From assembly GCF_000372645.1 (NCBI RefSeq), contig NZ_APMP01000023.1, positions 1 to 64,000 of the forward strand: a stretch of 64,000 bases of DNA, written 5' to 3'. This document shows positions 27,844 to 36,322 of this stretch, piece by piece. The DNA is from Caulobacter vibrioides OR37 (GTDB lineage Bacteria; Pseudomonadota; Alphaproteobacteria; Caulobacterales; Caulobacteraceae). The notes under the pieces were generated by a model that was not told the origin of the DNA, did not search any database, and saw only the letters and a list, made by a program, of their open reading frames with translations. The number at the start of each line of letters is the position of its first letter. Positions within the stretch are counted from its first letter, which is position 1. Both the position numbers and the translations under genes were made by a program.

Positions 27844-29784
27844 CTATTGGCCCAATAGCGTCTTTCGCCAGAACATGATGCTGGTCCAGAAATAGTAGTC
27901 CTCGTTCTCCTTCTTGCGGAAGACGTGGCCCTCGTTCTTGGCCAGCACGTGCCAGACCGAGCCGCCGCGGGCGCGGACGGCCTTGATCATCTGCTCGGCT
28001 TCCGACGGCGGCACGCGGGGATCGGTTCCGCCGGTGGCCACCAGCAGCGGCGTGGTGATCTTGTCGACGCTGGTCAGCGGCGAGATCTTCATCAGCTGTT
28101 CGCGCTGCTTGGGATCGCGCTCGTCGCCGTACTCCACCCGGCGCAGGTCGCGGCGGTAGGCCTGGGTGTTCTCCAGGAAGGTGACGAAGTTCGAGATCGC
28201 GACGTAGCAGTTGGCGCCCTTGAGGCGCGGGCTGTAGTGCGTGGCCGAGGCGTAGCACATGTAGCCGCCATACGAGACGCCGTTGACCGCGAAGCGGCTG
28301 GCGTCCAGGGCCGGGTTCTTTTCCAGCGTATCGAGGAAGACCCCGATGTCCTTGACCGAGTCCTCGCGCTTGAACGGACCGTTGTCGAGGTTGACGAACC
28401 GCGTCCCATAGCCGGTCGAGCCGCGCACGTTCGGGAAGAACAGCGCGACGCCCAGCTCGTTCAGCAGATAGTTGTTTCCGCCTAGGAAGTCCGGCCGCGT
28501 CTGCCCTTCCGGACCGCCGTGGATGTCGACGATCAGCGGACGCTTGCCCGGGAACTTGGCCGGGTCGGGCTGGTAGAGGAAGCCCGATATCTTCTCGCCG
28601 TCGAAGCTGGCGACCTCGACCAATTTCGGCTCGACATTGCGGCTGGGATCCAGACCGCCGGTCTCGCTGCGGGTCCACTGGGTGACGGCCAGGGTCTTGG
28701 GGTCGATCGAGAAGGCGTCGCCCGGCACCTTCGCCGAAGCCATGCTGAGGCCGATCTCGCCCCACGGCGCGATGCTGATGGCCGGACCGATGGCGTAGGG
28801 AATGACGCCCGCAGGCAGACCGTCAACGGGTCGAACCGCGCCGCTGGCCAAATCCAGGATCCGCACGCGCGACACGCCCGCCTCGTTGATCGCATAGACC
28901 GCGAAGGTCCCGTCCGGCGAGACCGCGAAGTCGCTGACGTCCCAGCGCGGCTCCTTCGACACCGGGACGAAGCCGCCCTTGCCGTCCAGCTTGCCCAGGC
29001 GCTGGAAGTCCGAACCCTTGTCGGATGTCAGCCAGACCGAACCGTCCTGGGCGTATTTCGGATCGACATAGGAGGCCTTGGCCTTCGGGTTGGTCAGCGC
29101 CTTCATCTTGCCGCTGGCCAGGTCCAGCTCATAGACCATGGCCTCGTTGACCGACATGCGATTCAAGACCAGGGCCTTGGCGCCGTCGGCCGAGAAATCG
29201 ACGATGTTCCAGCCGCCGCCGGTCACCTGGGCGACCAGGCGGTCGGTCTTGGGATCCTTGGGATCGACGACATAGAGGTCCATGTCGGCGCCGTTCCGGC
29301 GCGACGAGGCGTAGCCGACCAGCTTGCCGTCGCGTGACCAGGCGCCGAACCAGTTGCGGCTCTTGCCGTCGGTGATCAGGCGCGGGCGACCAGCCTCCAG
29401 GACGTAGAGCTGATAGAACTCGTCGCCGCCCTTGTCCTTCTGGATCACCAGCGTATCGCCCTTGGGCGACAGGGCGGCGGTCAGGATCGGTTCGCTCTCG
29501 AAGCTGATCTGGCGACGATCGCCGTCGGGCTTGGCCACGACGTGAACCTGGTTCGAGCCGCCGAACCGGGTCTTGATCAGCATCGAATGGTCGGCCGCGT
29601 TCCAGCCCAGGAAGTCGGCGTGGCGCGCCTGCAGATAGGGCGCGGTGGCCTCGACCAGGTCGCGGGGAATGGCGGGCGCGCCGTCGACGACGATGGCGAC
29701 GGGCGGCGCGACGGTCTGGGCCGCCAAGGGGGTCGCGACGGCGCCGGCCAACAGGGCCAGCGCCAGGGCATGACGGTAAATCAT
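27844..29784 (-). CDS. S9 family peptidase (prolyl oligopeptidase/acylaminoacyl-peptidase type), exported
   Basis: A 646-residue serine peptidase. The signal peptide is MIYRHALALALLAGAVATPLAAQ; a beta-propeller with WD40-like PD repeats follows to about residue 380, then an alpha/beta-hydrolase domain. The catalytic Ser lies in NGVSYGGYMC, the Asp in GGTDPRVPPSEAE and the His in NEGHVFRKKEN. It lies 83 bases after the TonB-dependent receptor gene on the same strand, so the tandem glycine riboswitch upstream probably controls both. A periplasmic peptidase paired with an outer-membrane receptor suggests peptide use. Confidence 0.9.
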   Translation of the reverse strand: MIYRHALALALLAGAVATPLAAQTVAPPVAIVVDGAPAIPRDLVEATAPYLQARHADFLGWNAADHSMLIKTRFGGSNQVHVVAKPDGDRRQISFESEPILTAALSPKGDTLVIQKDKGGDEFYQLYVLEAGRPRLITDGKSRNWFGAWSRDGKLVGYASSRRNGADMDLYVVDPKDPKTDRLVAQVTGGGWNIVDFSADGAKALVLNRMSVNEAMVYELDLASGKMKALTNPKAKASYVDPKYAQDGSVWLTSDKGSDFQRLGKLDGKGGFVPVSKEPRWDVSDFAVSPDGTFAVYAINEAGVSRVRILDLASGAVRPVDGLPAGVIPYAIGPAISIAPWGEIGLSMASAKVPGDAFSIDPKTLAVTQWTRSETGGLDPSRNVEPKLVEVASFDGEKISGFLYQPDPAKFPGKRPLIVDIHGGPEGQTRPDFLGGNNYLLNELGVALFFPNVRGSTGYGTRFVNLDNGPFKREDSVKDIGVFLDTLEKNPALDASRFAVNGVSYGGYMCYASATHYSPRLKGANCYVAISNFVTFLENTQAYRRDLRRVEYGDERDPKQREQLMKISPLTSVDKITTPLLVATGGTDPRVPPSEAEQMIKAVRARGGSVWHVLAKNEGHVFRKKENEDYYFWTSIMFWRKTLLGQ

Positions 29785-29867: not shown

Positions 29868-32570
29868 TTAGAAACGCATCCGCGCGCCGACGGTCACATA
29901 GCGGCCAATCACGTCGTAGTAGGGCGAGTACAGCGAGCTCACCGGCGGGTCCTTGTCGAACAGGTTGGTCGCGTTGGCGTAGAGCTCGATCTGGTGTCCC
30001 GCCAGGGGCGGCAGCTTGGCCTGAACGCCCAGGTCGACATAGGTGTAGGCCTTGATGTGGCCGTTCACGAGATCGACGGTGTTGTTGTAGTTGCCCGGCG
30101 AGATGTAGCGCGCCCGCAGATTGGCGCTGAACACCTTGCCCGACCAGTCCAGGCTGCCGGTCATGCGGCTCTTGGGCGTGCCCAGGCCGAACGAATAGCC
30201 CTGCGACTTCACGTACTCGATCTTGCTGACCCCGTCGTTGGTCGTCAGGCTGTTGACCCAGGTCATCAGCCAGCGGGCGCGGATGCGACCCGGCGCGTTG
30301 GCGATCAGACGGTCGAGATCGGTCGCGTAGGAGATCTCGGCGTCGACGCCGTCGGTCTTGTAGTTGGCCAGGTTCACATAGGTCGACACGATGCGCGTGA
30401 TCGTGCCGCTGGCGTCGCGGGTCACCCGAGAGCACATGTCGGCGTTGCCGTTGGCGCAGCGGGTGACGATGTCCTGCGCGGCGACCGTGGTGATCACGTT
30501 GTCGATGTTGATATTGAAGTAATCGACCGAGACATTGAGGCCCGGCAGGGCCGGCGGCGAATAGACGAAGCCGGTCGTGAAGGTCTTGGCCGTCTCGGGC
30601 GTCAGACCAGGATTGCCGCCGCCGTTGGTCAGCACATAGACACTGGAGTTGGTCTTCGGATCGACGATCGTGTTGTAGCCGGTCGTGCTGGTCGTGAAGA
30701 GCTCGGTCAGGTTAGCCGAGCGGATGTCGCGCGACTCGGTGATCCGGCCGCGGAAGCCGGGGAAGAACTCGTTGGTGGCGCCCAGCTTCCACGACCAGAT
30801 CGAGCCGGTGGTGTTGTAGTCGGAGACGCGGGCGGCGGCGTTGACTTCCAGCTTGTTGAAGACCGGTACGTCGCGGATGACCGGGACCAGCACCTCGGCG
30901 AAGGCTTCCTTGACATTGTAGCTGCCGGTCATGGCCGAGAAGCTGAAGGTGGTGAACGCCTTGGCCGCGTCGAGCGCGCCGACCGTGCGGTTGATCGACT
31001 CCTTGCGGGCCTCGGCGCCGACGGCGATCGAGACCGGACCGGCGGGCAGGCTGAAGGGTTCGCCGCGCAGGCTGAAGCCGCCGACGTCCAGCTTGCTGGT
31101 CTCGCGCTGGCTGGGCGTGCCGGTCACATAGGCCAGCGCCGCTTTCGAGGGCGCGCCCTGGCCGAACAGGTTGATCGGCACGCAGTTGGTCGAGGCGTTG
31201 GTCAGGGCGACGCGGCAGATCGGCTGACCGGTCGTCGGGCTGATCACCGAGTCGACCGCGTTGGCGTAGTTCTGGGTCAGGAAGAACCCGGGCGTGTCGA
31301 TATTGTTCTCGTTCTCGCCATGGCTGTAGTAGGCGCTCCAGCGCCAGCTGTCGCCGAACGAGCCGTCGAAGGCGATCGTGCCCTGGGTCGAGACACGCTC
31401 GAAGTCGATGGTCGGATAGGCCTCGGTATTAAAGCGACCCATCGTGAAGCTTGTCTGGCCGGCCGCCGCCATCGCCGACTTCACCGCCGCCGGCAGGAAG
31501 GCGTTGTCCGACTTGATCGTCAGGTTGCCGCGATTGTGGTCGCCGAACCAGATGTAGTCGTTCCACATCCGCGAGCGACGCAGCTCGGCGGTCATCTTGA
31601 CCTTGTCGGTCAGGTCATAGGTCAGGCTGGCCATGGCCGCGTAGTGCTTCTGCGGCGTGACCAGCGGCGACAGGTCGTCGTTCGAGGGCCCTTCGCCGCC
31701 GACCGTGTTGGTCCCGACCACCGTGCCGTAGTTGAAGTCGCGCAAGGTGCCGTCAGGATTGAAGGTCTTGCCCTTCAGAACGCCGGAAAGAATCAGGCCG
31801 CCGGGGGCGGCGTTGGCGAAGCCGACATTCGGCGCCAGGATGAAGCGGCCAGCGCCATTCGAGACCGTGGCCCAGCGACCGACATTGGGGCGGCTGTCCT
31901 TCGGGATCACGCCGTCGTTGTCGATATATTCGCCGCCGATCACGAACTGGCCGCGGCCGTCGGCGAAGCTCTTGCCCGCCGCCGCCTCCAGGCGGATCTG
32001 CTTGGCGTCGTTGTACGAGGACTCGCCGCGCTCGACGCCCATCTTCAGGCCGGTGAAAGCGCGGTCGATGCTGATATTGACCACGCCGGCCACGGCGCCG
32101 GAGCCCCAGGCCGCCGAGGCCCCGCCGGTCACCACGTCGACGCCCTTGGTCAGGACGCTGGGGATCAGGTTCAGGTCGTTGTCGCCGGAGAAGCGGCGGC
32201 CGTCCAGCAGCACCAGGGTGCGGCTGATGCCCAGGCCGCGCAGGTCGACGGGCGCGTTACCGGCGCCGGTGTTGGTGCCGGTGGTCTGAGCCGAGGTCGT
32301 GGCGCGGAACTGCGGCAGGTCGTTCAGGGCCGCGGCGATGTTCGGCCGCGCGCCGACGCTCAGGTCCTGAGCCGTGACGCGCACGGTCGGGGTCGGCGCC
32401 TGGAAGTCGGCGCGGTCGATGCGCGAGGCGGTGACGACGATCTCGCCGACGCTGTTGTCTTCGGGCTTGGCGGCCTCCTGGGCCAGAGCGGCGCCTTGGA
32501 GGGCCAGGATGGCGGGAACCAGGCTGCAGCCCAGCAGCAGGCCCCGGCGGGTTTGGCGTGAAAGAGTCAA
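29868..32570 (-). CDS. TonB-dependent outer-membrane receptor under a glycine riboswitch
   Basis: A 900-residue receptor. The signal peptide ends at ALAQ (about residue 31). The plug domain starts with EIVVTASRID and contains DLRGLGISRTLVLLDGRR and GGASAAWGSGAVAGVVNI. The long beta-barrel ends in VTVGARMRF with the terminal Phe required for assembly. Sequence pattern places it in the large receptor group that Caulobacterales use for sugars, peptides and metals; the ligand is not evident. The start is TTG with GAGGGG eight bases before it. The leader carries a tandem glycine riboswitch (32683-32880), so glycine or glycyl peptides are a plausible ligand class. Confidence 0.93.
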   Translation of the reverse strand: MTLSRQTRRGLLLGCSLVPAILALQGAALAQEAAKPEDNSVGEIVVTASRIDRADFQAPTPTVRVTAQDLSVGARPNIAAALNDLPQFRATTSAQTTGTNTGAGNAPVDLRGLGISRTLVLLDGRRFSGDNDLNLIPSVLTKGVDVVTGGASAAWGSGAVAGVVNISIDRAFTGLKMGVERGESSYNDAKQIRLEAAAGKSFADGRGQFVIGGEYIDNDGVIPKDSRPNVGRWATVSNGAGRFILAPNVGFANAAPGGLILSGVLKGKTFNPDGTLRDFNYGTVVGTNTVGGEGPSNDDLSPLVTPQKHYAAMASLTYDLTDKVKMTAELRRSRMWNDYIWFGDHNRGNLTIKSDNAFLPAAVKSAMAAAGQTSFTMGRFNTEAYPTIDFERVSTQGTIAFDGSFGDSWRWSAYYSHGENENNIDTPGFFLTQNYANAVDSVISPTTGQPICRVALTNASTNCVPINLFGQGAPSKAALAYVTGTPSQRETSKLDVGGFSLRGEPFSLPAGPVSIAVGAEARKESINRTVGALDAAKAFTTFSFSAMTGSYNVKEAFAEVLVPVIRDVPVFNKLEVNAAARVSDYNTTGSIWSWKLGATNEFFPGFRGRITESRDIRSANLTELFTTSTTGYNTIVDPKTNSSVYVLTNGGGNPGLTPETAKTFTTGFVYSPPALPGLNVSVDYFNINIDNVITTVAAQDIVTRCANGNADMCSRVTRDASGTITRIVSTYVNLANYKTDGVDAEISYATDLDRLIANAPGRIRARWLMTWVNSLTTNDGVSKIEYVKSQGYSFGLGTPKSRMTGSLDWSGKVFSANLRARYISPGNYNNTVDLVNGHIKAYTYVDLGVQAKLPPLAGHQIELYANATNLFDKDPPVSSLYSPYYDVIGRYVTVGARMRF

Positions 32571-32682
32571 AGCAAGATCCCCTCTGTTTCAACGATCGAC
32601 AGCCGCCTCCCCGCGCGACCGTCCATTCGGTCGCGTTCGGTCGCGTCGCGCGGGCCTCATCCCGCGTTTTCGCCAGGCGGTT

Positions 32683-32880
32683 CCTCTGCCCCCGCTGTCC
32701 CTTGGCCTGAGAGATTCAGGCGCGGTCGCGCCCTTGCTCCTTCGGCGAGGCCGCCCGCTATCGGGGCGATCCTGCTTTCCAGCGTCCTCTTGCTCCGCGG
32801 TCCCTGTTGCCTGAGCGTTTCCGGGGCGGTTGCGCCTTCGGCGTCGGGTCGAACCCGATCTCTTCCGCGAGAGCAGAGCC
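32683..32880 (-). ncRNA. Tandem glycine riboswitch (two aptamers)
   Basis: Read on the minus strand, this leader contains two copies of the glycine aptamer hallmarks. Aptamer 1 (about 32788-32880) has GCGGAAGAGA, GCCGAAGGCGCAA and AAACGCTCAGGCAACAGGGACCGC. Aptamer 2 (about 32683-32787) has GCTGGAAAGC, GCCGAAGGAGCAAGG and AATCTCTCAGGCCAAGGGACAGC. A short linker joins them, as in the classical cooperative tandem form. The expression platform (32571-32682) is GC-rich with several possible hairpins. Glycine riboswitches normally precede gcvTHP or transport genes; here the next gene is a TonB-dependent receptor. Confidence 0.93.
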
Positions 32881-33099
32881 AATACGAACGTTTCGCCATC
32901 CGGCGTCAAAGCGCGGAAACGAGGCATGAAATATCAAGGATCGCCGCCCGAAAGGAAAAGACCACCCCGCGATCAACCAACGATGGTCGCGCCTGTTCTT
33001 CCGCTTTCGCGAGAGGCGTCACGATGACAGGTCGGTGACAGCTTCGCGGCGCTCCACGCCGACCGCCGAAATGCCGCCGAGTTTCTGATATTCGCCAAT
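32881..33099. other. Intergenic region upstream of the glycine riboswitch
   Basis: About 220 bases with no recognisable gene. It must hold the promoter of the riboswitch-controlled transcript on the minus strand. The part nearest 33060-33100 is AT-rich compared with its surroundings. Confidence 0.4.
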
Positions 33100-33141
33100 A
33101 TTGCCTATATTTTAATCGGATTCGCTCTAATATTAGGCAAT
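33100..33141 (-). terminator. AT-rich hairpin at the end of the solute-binding protein gene
   Basis: ATTGCCTA (33100-33107) pairs with TAGGCAAT (33134-33141), with further AT pairing inside. It lies immediately past the stop codon of the solute-binding protein gene. The composition is strikingly AT-rich for this genome. Confidence 0.5.
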
Positions 33142-33142
33142 C

Positions 33143-34174
33143 CTATTGCTTGAGCGCCGCCCTCCAGGTGTCGAGCAGCTCGGTCCGACGGCCCTGGTCG
33201 AAATTGGCCAGCAATGCGGGGCCGATCCGGATCGGCCTTGCCCCTAGGCCAAGGGCGGTCGCCCCGCCGACGGACCGGATGGGCGGAAGTCCACTTTGGG
33301 CCAACCGCCGCTGCCCCTCGTCGGACATCAGATAGTCCAGGAACAGCCGCGCGGCCTTCGGATGCGGCGCCGAGCGGGTGATGAAAGCCACCCGCGAGAT
33401 CAGAAGCTGATAGTCGCTGGGCACGACATAACCGAGATCGGGATTGCGTCTGCGCGCCCACCATTCGGCAAAGGTTTGGGTCAGGCCGAAGACCATCACG
33501 TGCTGATCCGTCAGACTGTTCAGCATCGAGGAGCCCACCACGAACAGACCAGGCTCCGATCCCGCCAGCGCGTCGTACATCGCCTGGGCGTCCGGATAGA
33601 CCTGCAGGTCGCCGGACATGTACATGAAACCCAGTCCGCTCCTTTCCGGATCGTACATCGCGATCTTGCCGCGCCAGCGATCGGGGTCGGCGCGCAGGGC
33701 CGCCAGCAACGCCGCGTGGCTGCGCGGGACCTCCGCCTCGTTCAACAGCTTCTTGTTATAGGCGAAGACGATCGGCTCGGCGGTGACGCCGAAGCCCTGG
33801 TCGCGCCAGACCGCCCAGGTCGGCAGGCCCTTGGCCTCCGGGCTGCGATAGGTCTGGGCGTAGCCGTCGTTGATAAGCTTGACCTGGATGTCCATCGTCG
33901 AACTCCAGGCGACGTCGGCGACCGGCTTGCCCGCCTGGGTTTCGGCGATCAGTCGCTCGCGGATCTTGACGGAGGTCAGCGTCACCAGGCGCACCTTGAT
34001 CTTCGGAAAACGCCGCTGGAACCCGTCGGTGACGTCCTCGTGGCCGTCGCTGTTCATATAGACGACCAGTTCGCCCTCCCGCTGGGCGGCGCTCACGTCC
34101 CAGGCGCTGGTCGCCTGTCCGGCGGGCTTGGGCGCGCAGCCCACCAGCATCACCGCCAGGACCAGCGCGGCCAT
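33143..34174 (-). CDS. Extracellular solute-binding lipoprotein (FbpA/PgtC-like), orphan
   Basis: A 343-residue type II periplasmic binding protein. The N-terminus MAALVLAVMLVGCAPKP is a lipoprotein signal with a lipobox cysteine. Mature-domain features include GELVVYMNSDGHEDVTDGFQRRFPKIKV and, later, FLDYLMSDEGQRRLAQSGLPPIR, the usual family ending. No permease or ATPase gene is adjacent; instead it is divergent from a two-component pair. PgtC of Salmonella is a precedent for a binding protein that works with a sensor kinase. The start is ATG 34174; no strong ribosome site is seen, so the exact start is less certain. Confidence 0.83.
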   Translation of the reverse strand: MAALVLAVMLVGCAPKPAGQATSAWDVSAAQREGELVVYMNSDGHEDVTDGFQRRFPKIKVRLVTLTSVKIRERLIAETQAGKPVADVAWSSTMDIQVKLINDGYAQTYRSPEAKGLPTWAVWRDQGFGVTAEPIVFAYNKKLLNEAEVPRSHAALLAALRADPDRWRGKIAMYDPERSGLGFMYMSGDLQVYPDAQAMYDALAGSEPGLFVVGSSMLNSLTDQHVMVFGLTQTFAEWWARRRNPDLGYVVPSDYQLLISRVAFITRSAPHPKAARLFLDYLMSDEGQRRLAQSGLPPIRSVGGATALGLGARPIRIGPALLANFDQGRRTELLDTWRAALKQ

Positions 34175-34265
34175 GACTCGATGCGTCCCGCGTCCCTTGA
34201 CCTTATCTGGCAATCGGCGTCGGATGATGGCCCGTCCCCCTTTCGTCTTCGGTCCTACATCCCCG

Positions 34266-34934
34266 ATGAAGATACTGGTTGTCGAGGATGATCCGCCTCT
34301 GCGTCGCTCCCTGATCGCGACGCTGGAGAGCGAGGGCAACGTGGCCGTCTGCGCCGAGACCGGGGCGGCCGCCCTGGCCATGGCCTCGGCGCATGGCGCC
34401 GGCTTCGACGCCATCGTGCTGGATATCGGCCTGCCCGACATTGACGGGTTCGAGATTCTGGGCCGGCTTCGGCGCGAGGGCGTCTCCACGCCGATCGTCA
34501 TCCTGACCGCTCGCGACGCCGTCCGAGACCGCATCGCGGGCCTGGACATGGGCGCCGACGACTATGTGCCAAAGCCCTTCGATCCGTTCGAGCTGGTGGC
34601 CCGCGTGCGGGCCGTGGCGCGGCGCAAAGCGGGCTACGCCGCGCGGACCGTCCATGTCGGCGCCTTGGCCTGCGATTGGGACGCGGGCTGCGCCTGGGTC
34701 GGCGACCGGCGCCTCGACCTGCGCCCCCGGGAGTGGGCGGCGCTAAAGGCCCTGGCCGGGCGCGCTGGCCGCGTCGTCGAGCGCGATCACCTGGCCGCCG
34801 AGGTATTTCCCGACGAGGAAACGCCCTCGCCCAACGCCCTGGATGTCCATGTCGGCCGGTTGCGGCGCAAGCTGGCGCCGGACGGGCCGCGCCTGAGCAC
34901 GCTGCGCGGCCTCGGCTATCGGCTGGACCCGTGA
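34266..34934 (+). CDS. OmpR/TctD-type response regulator
   Basis: A 222-residue regulator with a receiver domain (MKILVVEDDPPLRRSL, phospho-acceptor Asp in VLDIGLPDIDG, switch Thr in ILTARD, Lys in YVPKPFDP) and a C-terminal winged helix (LDLRPREWAALKAL; NALDVHVGRLRRKL; TLRGLGYRLDP). Its stop overlaps the GTG start of the kinase gene (GTGA). It is divergent from the solute-binding lipoprotein gene with 91 bases between. Confidence 0.93.
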   Translation: MKILVVEDDPPLRRSLIATLESEGNVAVCAETGAAALAMASAHGAGFDAIVLDIGLPDIDGFEILGRLRREGVSTPIVILTARDAVRDRIAGLDMGADDYVPKPFDPFELVARVRAVARRKAGYAARTVHVGALACDWDAGCAWVGDRRLDLRPREWAALKALAGRAGRVVERDHLAAEVFPDEETPSPNALDVHVGRLRRKLAPDGPRLSTLRGLGYRLDP

Positions 34935-36322
34935 GGCGTGAAGCGTTCGGGCGGGGACGCTCCAGCCTGGTCGGCCGCCTGCTGCTGGCCCAGATCGTGC
35001 CGCTGGCCCTGCTGGCCGCCGCCCTGGCCCTGGCCGGAGCCCTGGCCGCCCAGGCGGTGGTCGAGAAGGACTCCGACCGCCTGCTGGCCGGGTCCGTCGC
35101 CTCGATCGTCGCCCAGATCGGGGTGAGGAACGGCGAGGCCAAGGTCGCTCTGCCGCCCTGGTCCCTGGGCCTGCTGGACAGCCCCGAACGCGACGCGGTG
35201 TTCTACGCGGTGCGTCAGGGCCCTCGCCTGATCACCGGCTACGAGGACCTGCCGCGCCCCCCCGCGCCGGCGCCCAACGAGACCAACTTCGCCTACGCCA
35301 CCATGCGCGGCTATCCGGTGCGCATCGCGCAATCGACCGTGATGGCGCCGGGGATGGCCGAACCGGTCGTGGTCGCCGTGGCCCAGAGCCTGGACTCCCG
35401 CCAGGCCAGCGTGCGCGAACTGCTGTTCAACCTGATCGGCCTGCCGGTGCTGCTGGTCGCTGTCGCCGCCGCCCTGGTCATCCCAGCCCTCGGGTGGGGC
35501 CTGGCGCCGCTACGCCGGCTGACGGCCGACCTGACGACCCGCGCCCAGGCCTCGCGTCCGGATCTGACGCCGGTCAGCGCCGCCGACGCGCCCGCCGAAC
35601 TGGCCCCGGTGGTCGGCGCCTTCAACCGCATGATGGACAGCCTGGACCGCTTCACGCGCGCCCTGGAACGCTTCTCGGCCGACGCCTCGCATCAGTTGCG
35701 GACCCCCCTCTCGGTGATCGTCGCCAATCTGGCGCTGCTGGAGCGCTCGGCGACGGCGCCGCGCGACCAGGCGCTGTTGCGGGACTCGCGCGACGCCGCC
35801 GCCAACCTGCGCCAGCTGCTGTCGCAATTCCTGGCCCTGGCCCGCTCGGAGGCCGCCGCGGCCGAGGGCGAGGCCGACCTCGCCGCCCTGCTGACCACGA
35901 TCCAAGTCGAGGCCGCGCGCGGCTTTCCGGAGGTCGAGGTGCTGTCGCGCATTCGCCGCGACCTGCCTCCCGTCCGGGGCAATCCCCTTCTGATCGGCGA
36001 GGCGCTGCGCAACCTCGTTTTCAACGCCTGCGCCTATGGAGGCGGCAAGGTCCGCATCCTGGCGGGCGAGGAGGCCGGCGCGACGACGGTCGTGATCTGG
36101 GACCACGGTCCAGGCGCCGACCCGGCCGAGCTGGACCGCCTCCTCAAGCCCTTCGCGCGCGGCGCCGCCGGGCAGGCGCACGCCGGCGCGGGCCTGGGCC
36201 TGGCCATCGTGCGCTCGATCACCGGCCGCCTGAACATAAGATTGACGCTCCGCGCCCGTCGCCCGCGCCCCGGCCTGGTGGCGATCTGCGATTTTCCGCC
36301 GCCGCAGCCGAACCGACTCTAG
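34931..36322 (+). CDS. Sensor histidine kinase (TctE-like)
   Basis: A 463-residue membrane kinase: TM1 near residues 17-40, a periplasmic sensor segment, TM2 near 165-185, HAMP, then the H-box FSADASHQLRTPLSVIVANL with the phosphorylated His, and an N-box (EALRNLVFNACAYG), G1 (DHGPGADP) and G2 (GAGLGLAIV) ATP-binding region. The TctE-like group senses tricarboxylates and related solutes, often with help from a binding protein. GTG start, overlapping the regulator gene by 4 bases. Confidence 0.92.
   Translation: MRREAFGRGRSSLVGRLLLAQIVPLALLAAALALAGALAAQAVVEKDSDRLLAGSVASIVAQIGVRNGEAKVALPPWSLGLLDSPERDAVFYAVRQGPRLITGYEDLPRPPAPAPNETNFAYATMRGYPVRIAQSTVMAPGMAEPVVVAVAQSLDSRQASVRELLFNLIGLPVLLVAVAAALVIPALGWGLAPLRRLTADLTTRAQASRPDLTPVSAADAPAELAPVVGAFNRMMDSLDRFTRALERFSADASHQLRTPLSVIVANLALLERSATAPRDQALLRDSRDAAANLRQLLSQFLALARSEAAAAEGEADLAALLTTIQVEAARGFPEVEVLSRIRRDLPPVRGNPLLIGEALRNLVFNACAYGGGKVRILAGEEAGATTVVIWDHGPGADPAELDRLLKPFARGAAGQAHAGAGLGLAIVRSITGRLNIRLTLRARRPRPGLVAICDFPPPQPNRL

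What the first reader, a model, noticed from the sequence alone, without database searches (positions are those of the whole stretch)
29868..32880. Tandem glycine riboswitch in front of a TonB-dependent receptor and an exported S9 peptidase
The minus-strand leader contains two full glycine aptamer signatures (GCCGAAGGNGCAA and CTCAGGC...GGGAC twice). Known glycine riboswitches control the gcv operon or glycine/alanine carriers. Here the next genes are an outer-membrane receptor and a periplasmic oligopeptidase, which suggests glycine sensing tied to uptake or processing of glycine-rich peptides. The aptamers are seen; the physiological link is inferred.
Basis: partly seen in the sequence, partly recalled or inferred. 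Interest (0 to 1): 0.85.

Follow-up and report, generated by a model that had tools for sequence, protein, structure and literature searches.

The report
Glycine riboswitch before receptor and peptidase
A well-known RNA sensor for glycine, usually found in front of glycine-breakdown genes, sits here and in relatives in front of an outer-membrane receptor and an exported peptide-cutting enzyme, which suggests that these bacteria use their internal glycine level to set how much peptide they scavenge.

Summary
Observation confirmed. Both aptamers match Rfam RF00504 (59.2 and 46.8 bits; cut-off 32) in the minus-strand leader of a 900-aa TonB-dependent receptor (TBDT_A) followed by an S9 peptidase. 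gcvT has its own riboswitch elsewhere in the genome.

The pairing is conserved: in 299 sampled genomes of the family, all 23 with TBDT_A at 69% identity or more have the aptamers directly upstream, in Caulobacter, Brevundimonas and Phenylobacterium. TBDT_A-S9 pairs in Sphingomonas and Pseudoxanthomonas lack it.

The pattern recurs: four further dissimilar receptors (B-E) lie behind glycine riboswitches, B and C beside an M19 dipeptidase and a penicillin-amidase-type hydrolase. Of 49 non-gcvT riboswitch clusters fetched in the family, 46 precede a receptor; 20 of 20 hand-picked class-wide loci precede gcvT.

Best reading: cytosolic glycine sets expression of peptide-scavenging operons. Against: close class B orthologs, one in this genome, lack the riboswitch. 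Sign, substrate and glycine binding are not shown; folding tests were uninformative. My searches found no report of this target. A new target set for a known riboswitch.

The parts
32788..32877 (-). glycine riboswitch aptamer 1
   Evidence: RF00504, 59.2 bits, full model length
32693..32784 (-). glycine riboswitch aptamer 2
   Evidence: RF00504, 46.8 bits, model 9-86 of 94
32571..32692 (-). rest of the leader (122 bases) up to the receptor start codon; presumed expression platform, mechanism not determined
   Evidence: position only; folding tests uninformative
29868..32570 (-). TonB-dependent outer-membrane receptor, 900 aa, TTG start (TBDT_A)
   Evidence: PF00593 99.4 bits, PF07715 57.3 bits; orthologs in 23 of 299 family genomes at 69% identity or more
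27844..29784 (-). S9-family peptidase, 646 aa, with a signal peptide by eye
   Evidence: PF00326 108.4 bits; nearest solved sequence 5l8s, E 3.9e-44; next to TBDT_A in 22 of 23 class A loci

Best explanation
A genuine tandem glycine riboswitch controls a receptor-peptidase operon. Inferred chain: the receptor brings a peptide or acyl-amino-acid substrate into the periplasm, the exported peptidase cleaves it, glycine or glycine-containing products reach the cytosol, and cytosolic glycine is read by the leader RNA, which tunes the operon. The riboswitch shares an origin inside the family with the gcvT riboswitch, and related copies were placed before other receptors. Shown: aptamers, gene order, conservation, recurrence. 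Inferred: glycine binding, co-transcription, substrate and the chain itself. For the sign I lean to feedback repression (about 0.55 against 0.45 for induction), because product repression is the usual logic of scavenging genes; no computation here supports either sign.
For: RF00504 matches well over cut-off; gcvT has its own riboswitch; exact agreement between the 23 family genomes with TBDT_A at 69% identity or more and the 23 with the riboswitch in front of it; S9 next to the receptor in 22 of 23, the 23rd cut by a contig end; 46 of 49 non-gcvT clusters fetched in the family precede a receptor, in four dissimilar receptor classes and a fifth outside the family; classes B and C stand next to an M19 dipeptidase (12 of 20 loci) and a penicillin-amidase-type hydrolase (2 of 2); 20 of 20 hand-picked class-wide loci precede gcvT instead; aptamer cores almost invariant over 23 class A leaders, 9 of 39 predicted pairs with changes on both sides.
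Against: No alternative pairing of aptamer 2's P1 strand stands out from shuffles and no conserved switch was found. No sigma-70-like promoter was found at 32500-33200. In class B the riboswitch is absent from close orthologs, including the window's own genome (89%), G244 (89%) and G032 (93%). M19 was not found in 8 of 20 class B stretches. TBDT_A-S9 pairs exist without the riboswitch. Nothing identifies the substrate; the receptor's best NCBIfam hits are heme/hemoglobin subfamilies, far below cut-off. Some RNAs of this architecture are reported to reject glycine (PMC9481103, passage).
Confidence: 0.72

Rival explanations
1. The riboswitch is an inducer switch (ON): glycine released from imported substrate raises receptor and peptidase in parallel with gcvT, so that glycine-yielding compounds serve as carbon, nitrogen and one-carbon source.
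For: The aptamers group with the family's own gcvT riboswitches, which are thought to be ON switches (recalled; a paper title cited in PMC5756330 reports activation of the cleavage system in Streptomyces).
Against: No computation supports either sign; other glycine riboswitches are predicted to be OFF switches (serine biosynthesis genes, PMC9481103 passage).
Confidence: 0.4
2. The receptor imports something other than peptide, such as heme or another iron carrier, and glycine is read for another reason: in Alphaproteobacteria glycine is a precursor of heme through 5-aminolevulinate (recalled).
For: Best NCBIfam hits of TBDT_A are hemoglobin/transferrin and heme receptor subfamilies, 70.3 and 68.7 bits; its best solved relative is BtuB, over the plug region only.
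Against: Those hits are far below their cut-offs of 323.75 and 316.85 bits; the neighbouring enzymes of classes A, B and C are peptidases or amidohydrolases.
Confidence: 0.13
3. The riboswitch is real RNA but of little regulatory weight here: an inherited leader kept by chance, with the receptor driven by other promoters or operators.
For: Class B orthologs persist without it and keep an AT-rich stretch before the start.
Against: In class A it is kept in 23 of 23 genomes across three genera with nearly invariant cores and without such an AT-rich stretch (by eye).
Confidence: 0.08
4. The aptamers have changed ligand and sense a compound near glycine.
For: Glycine riboswitch variants that reject glycine are reported (PMC9481103, passage); in class B aptamer 1 carries GCUGAAGG/CUCAAGC.
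Against: Class A cores match the RF00504 consensus and aptamer 1's core equals that of the gcvT leader L001; the class B change is a paired C-G to U-A change (by eye).
Confidence: 0.07

Closest known systems
Glycine riboswitch RF00504, tandem type, in front of gcvT
   Same: Two RF00504 aptamers in tandem, same motifs; the aptamers group with the family's own gcvT leaders apart from outgroups (support 1.0)
   Different: Downstream genes are an outer-membrane receptor and an exported peptidase; the leader after aptamer 2 differs and is longer, 122 bases here
Glycine riboswitch regulons of the comparative survey PMC3766115 (passages read)
   Same: Some targets are transporters (glycine transporters)
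   Different: The passages sort the regulated genes into glycine metabolism, glycine transporters and serine metabolism; 'outer membrane' and 'peptidase' do not occur in the main text (supplements not seen). Here the target would act before any free glycine exists
Cobalamin riboswitches in front of TonB-dependent receptors (example in PMC5756330, passage)
   Same: A metabolite riboswitch placed upstream of a TonB-dependent receptor
   Different: There the ligand is the kind of compound such receptors import; here glycine would be a breakdown product of the imported compound

Membership tests
Glycine riboswitch RF00504 | Covariance match over the curated cut-off (32 bits) | tested here: met
   59.2 and 46.8 bits
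Glycine riboswitch RF00504 | Two aptamers in tandem, the common form | tested here: met
   32788-32877 and 32693-32784 on the same strand, three bases apart
Glycine riboswitch RF00504 | Structure kept in relatives | tested here: met
   23 class A leaders: 9 of 39 predicted pairs with both sides changed and kept; three pairs broken or gapped in 6-7 of 23
Glycine riboswitch RF00504 | Ligand-dependent expression platform | tested here: inconclusive
   No alternative pairing above shuffles; forced-P1 folding uninformative
Glycine riboswitch RF00504 | Binds glycine | not testable with these tools
   needs in-line probing or calorimetry
TonB-dependent receptor | Plug and beta-barrel domains over cut-off | tested here: met
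   PF07715 57.3 bits, PF00593 99.4 bits
Peptidase family S9 | S9 catalytic domain over cut-off | tested here: met
   PF00326 108.4 bits against 22.6; Ser-Asp-His motifs by eye
Prolyl oligopeptidase proper (S9A) | Peptidase_S9_N domain over cut-off as well | tested here: not met
   PF02897 19.9 bits, cut-off 24; filed only as an S9 peptidase

The most novel reading that the evidence does not exclude
Caulobacteraceae run a glycine-sensing RNA regulon for outer-membrane foraging: riboswitches of one family-wide lineage shared with gcvT were installed before several dissimilar TonB receptors, at least some with their own hydrolase, so that the cell measures what a foraging operon yields (intracellular glycine) rather than its substrate. 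The same solution arose separately in at least one other alphaproteobacterial family.
Probability: 0.48. Interest if true: 0.78.

Novelty: new variant of a known kind. Interest (0 to 1): 0.67.

Why it matters
Substrates of most TonB-dependent receptors in such bacteria are unknown (general knowledge); this genome alone has 92 barrel matches, 90 over cut-off. A metabolite riboswitch in front of a receptor is a direct clue to physiology. If right, it gives a testable set of candidate peptide or acyl-amino-acid receptors with partner enzymes, shows one regulatory RNA recruited repeatedly to outer-membrane uptake, and widens the glycine regulon beyond the gene groups named in the survey passages read here (PMC3766115).

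Tried and rejected
Mis-assigned gcv leader: rejected; gcvT has its own tandem riboswitch on another contig.

A lone accident in this genome: rejected by the family survey.

Expression platform by folding: 23 class A, 20 class B and 14 gcvT leaders were folded with aptamer-2 P1 enforced or forbidden. Start-site accessibility changed little in most (larger shifts in a few, such as L101 and L100), and in the forbidden runs the P1 strand came out wholly unpaired in every leader, probably an artefact of how I set the constraint; I put no weight on this test. A search for a strand competing with P1 gave mean z -0.42 (11 class A Caulobacter), -0.25 (9 class A Brevundimonas-type), +0.41 (L114, L117, L119), -0.47 (14 gcvT) and +0.21 (20 class B); nothing stands out from shuffles, and since the gcvT leaders gave no clear signal either, the test has little power.

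Promoter scan of 32500-33200: no sigma-70-like site; two terminator-like sites, both upstream of the aptamers. By eye several Brevundimonas-type class A leaders have TTGACA, 17 bases, then TTTACT or CTTACT just before aptamer 1; not tested.

Altered ligand in class B: not pursued; the two papers I wanted on variants and singlets are not held.

Consensus folding of class A groups without the first aptamer gave no consistent structure after aptamer 2 (that script stopped with an error before class B, and class B consensus folding was not repeated).

The tree used 90 of 103 listed leaders; 13 failed the motif used to cut segments (12 of 20 outgroup gcvT leaders and L135), and the two riboswitches of L148 (class D and its gcvT) were not put in.

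No structure prediction was run.
Full report
WHAT IS THERE. A scan of the whole window against Rfam returned two matches over cut-off, both glycine riboswitch aptamers on the minus strand: 32788-32877 (59.2 bits, full model) and 32693-32784 (46.8 bits), cut-off 32 bits. Along the minus strand they are followed after 122 bases by a 900-aa open frame with TTG start, 29868-32570, a TonB-dependent receptor by Pfam (plug 57.3 bits, barrel 99.4 bits), and 83 bases further by a 646-aa S9-family peptidase, 27844-29784 (108.4 bits). By eye both proteins begin with a signal peptide and the peptidase keeps the Ser, Asp and His motifs of S9 enzymes (my reading). Its closest solved relative by sequence is 'Amino acyl peptidase' 5l8s, E 3.9e-44. 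The next gene on the strand here is ahcY; in L046, the one other class A locus in which I looked at the frame after the peptidase, it is something else. I therefore take the operon to be receptor plus peptidase; co-transcription was not tested.

NOT A GCV LEADER. The same genome has four RF00504 matches: this pair and a pair on contig 2, which precedes gcvT.

THE PAIRING IS CONSERVED. In a first set all 61 genomes (own plus 60 relatives) have RF00504 matches, mostly two; in a family-wide set 289 of 299 do. These runs used stricter filters that lose some aptamers, so numbers of extra copies are lower bounds (G148 had an aptamer before its class B receptor that appeared only). I took the 45 genomes with three or more matches, plus G023, fetched the clusters that looked additional and many gcvT clusters, and asked which reference protein lies downstream (exceptions read). 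The fetched loci, window included, hold 83 clusters: 34 before gcvT; 23 before relatives of the window's receptor (class A, window included); 20 before a second receptor (class B); 2 before a third (class C); 1 before a fourth (class D); 2 before a serine dehydratase gene (Pfam for L128; L138 by reading); 1 weak lone aptamer upstream of a gcvT pair (L135). So 46 of 49 non-gcvT clusters precede a TonB-dependent receptor. The sample is enriched for extra aptamers by design. Ten second clusters of these genomes (in G002, G012, G020, G021, G022, G023, G034, G153, G211 and G234) were not classified. Separately, of the 34 small search loci L001-L034, 31 match GcvT best, 2 are the window's own pair and 1 is class B (L001/L003 are one place, as are L002/L004).

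The converse search starts from the protein. Of the 299 genomes, 32 have a TBDT_A relative at E 1e-170 or better. The 23 at 69% identity or more (G144 in two pieces at contig ends) are exactly the 23 genomes with a class A riboswitch. The other 9 are at 39-52%. For two of these (G208, G264) the stretch upstream was scanned and has no aptamer; for five (G109, G150, G155, G204, G233) the RF00504 place listed is elsewhere in the genome; for G173 and G210 I did not locate the matches. For the two Brevundimonas records and the Phenylobacterium bin the scan of the named loci lists only the first aptamer, while the whole-genome scan lists both for B. intermedia and the bin. S9 stands next to TBDT_A in 22 of 23 class A loci; the 23rd is cut by its contig end.

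THE GENE PAIR IS WIDER THAN THE RIBOSWITCH. TBDT_A at 63-71% identity is next to S9 in Pseudoxanthomonas composti, Sphingomonas colocasiae and Sphingomonas sp. 7/4-4, without RF00504; a Novosphingobium relative (54%) has neither. Rfam was run on 21 of the 43 loci (L054-L074); in the other 22 (L075-L096) only the motif search was run, which found no aptamer-like pair of motifs. So the riboswitch was added to, or lost from, an existing unit.

THE PATTERN RECURS. Class B (about 800 aa) is followed by an M19 dipeptidase in 12 of 20 loci; in the other 8 none was found in the fetched stretch (PF01244 316.2 bits; nearest solved chain 2rag 'Dipeptidase', E 3.1e-124). Class C (L134, L147, from the genus of the Phenylobacterium bin) is followed in both by a hydrolase of the penicillin amidase type (PF01804 415.6 bits for L134). 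Class D (L148): receptor, then gcvT with its own riboswitch. Class E (L158), in another alphaproteobacterial family, is followed by a frame cut at 570 aa by the locus end, with beta-propeller repeats (PD40 132 bits) and no peptidase domain in that part; a tricorn-like protease is a guess. Between receptors A to D only local alignments are found, for example 32% over 182 residues and 22% over 272; all belong to the same broad superfamily. The two class E aptamers score 71.7 and 52.7 bits for RF00504, where only the best family of a clan is shown, RF03166 (glycine-GGAnGA) is listed at 77.2 bits, below its cut-off of 110.

CONTROLS. Twenty loci picked by hand from the strongest class-wide matches (289 genomes, 164 with a match), one per genome and not drawn at random, all precede gcvT. 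In ten class-wide genomes with three or more aptamers I fetched 20 stretches: 8 gcvT, 5 serine dehydratase, 1 a hydroxylase-like frame followed by serine dehydratase, 2 FAD amino-acid oxidase-like, 2 glutamine-synthetase-like, 1 unclear short contig, 1 receptor (class E). gcvT is by tblastn; of the rest Pfam was run only for L158 and L165, the others are my reading. Two further clusters of those genomes were not fetched. So outside the family 1 of 40 stretches precedes a receptor. The own genome has 92 barrel matches, about 2% of its genes if it has roughly 4,200 (my estimate), so 46 of 49 is far from chance; but the 46 are not independent, since classes A and B are each one inherited lineage.

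EVIDENCE THE OTHER WAY. In class B the riboswitch is not obligatory. Of 60 genomes with TBDT_B relatives, 20 carry it by the survey. Eighteen upstream stretches were scanned with permissive settings: 2 have it (G148, G321), 1 was too short, 15 have none, among them the window's own genome (89% identity), G244 (89%), G032 (93%) and G006 (75%); the other 11 belong to copies at 61-73%. The remaining 23 of the 60 genomes were not scanned there. The three close cases keep, by eye, the AT-rich stretch before the start seen in riboswitch-bearing class B leaders, so that receptor probably has another promoter or operator as well. Class A leaders show no such stretch (by eye).

STRUCTURE AND DESCENT. 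The 23 class A leaders align with nearly invariant aptamer cores; of 39 predicted pairs 9 have changes on both sides that keep the pair, and three pairs are broken or gapped in 6-7 of 23. Class B leaders are tandem by motif too: aptamer 1 has GCUGAAGG/CUCAAGC for GCCGAAGG/CUCAGGC, a paired C-G to U-A change, and aptamer 2 has the usual core, although Rfam reports one aptamer per locus in the three class B loci. A tree of 90 tandem segments groups class A (support 0.85), class B (0.90), class C (0.83) and the family's gcvT leaders (0.96) each as a clade, B with C at 0.66, A+B+C not as a clade, and A, B, C and the family's gcvT together (1.0) apart from outgroup gcvT, serine dehydratase and class E. 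Segments are about 190 bases and the rooting is arbitrary. I read only this: each class is one inherited lineage, their riboswitches share an origin within the family, and class E is separate.

HOW IT WORKS. Shown: sensor, gene order, conservation, recurrence. Known for the family: glycine riboswitches commonly have two aptamers and one expression platform (PMC9481103, passages). Inferred: cytosolic glycine controls the receptor-peptidase operon as a read-out of scavenging. The sign is open; I lean slightly to repression. The folding tests had little power.

WHAT IS IN PRINT. Full-text searches for 'glycine riboswitch' with 'TonB-dependent receptor', 'TonB', 'Caulobacter', 'peptidase', 'outer membrane receptor' and 'Phenylobacterium', and further searches (riboswitch/TonB-dependent/Caulobacter; TonB-dependent receptor/dipeptidase/glycine/Caulobacter; two broader ones) listed no paper that, in its title, the start of its abstract or the passages I read, reports this target. 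I read passages of PMC3766115, PMC2704228, PMC2211319, PMC5756330 and PMC9481103; all others were seen only as listings. The library lacks most subscription papers and supplements were not available, so a regulon table may already list some of these genes.

VERDICT. The sensor is of a known kind; its target set and recurrence are new as far as I could see. The glycine-rich-peptide idea stays a hypothesis, better founded than when it was written.

Noticed in passing
L198 (G000:C3:215042-215942), own genome: The window's own genome has a class B receptor (89% identity to P0002) without the glycine riboswitch that most of its closest relatives' copies carry.
   Followed up: partly
class B leaders, e.g. 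L045 and L142, about 80 bases before the receptor start: An inverted repeat TGTTCA-TATAT-TGAAC lies in the AT-rich stretch before class B receptors and may be an operator; seen in this form in few leaders.
   Followed up: partly
L168, L172 and L165, L173: In other alphaproteobacterial genomes glycine riboswitches precede a glutamine-synthetase-like gene and an FAD amino-acid oxidase-like gene.
   Followed up: partly
L135 (G125:C18:150846-150933, -): A lone weak aptamer (39.5 bits) lies about 2 kb upstream of a gcvT tandem riboswitch, with no obvious gene of its own.
   Followed up: no
window 32568-32570 (-) and the 10 other Caulobacter class A leaders: The receptor start aligns at a TTG codon in 11 of 11 Caulobacter leaders that resemble the window's (L119 from the same genus has ATG).
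   Followed up: no
window 33143-36322: Upstream of the riboswitch lie a solute-binding protein gene (-) (SBP_bac_8 65.5 bits) and, on the other strand, what look like a response regulator and a sensor kinase (by eye).
   Followed up: no
L148 (G175:C158:4550-10668): Two tandem glycine riboswitches lie 3.5 kb apart on one strand, the first before a receptor (class D), the second before gcvT.
   Followed up: partly
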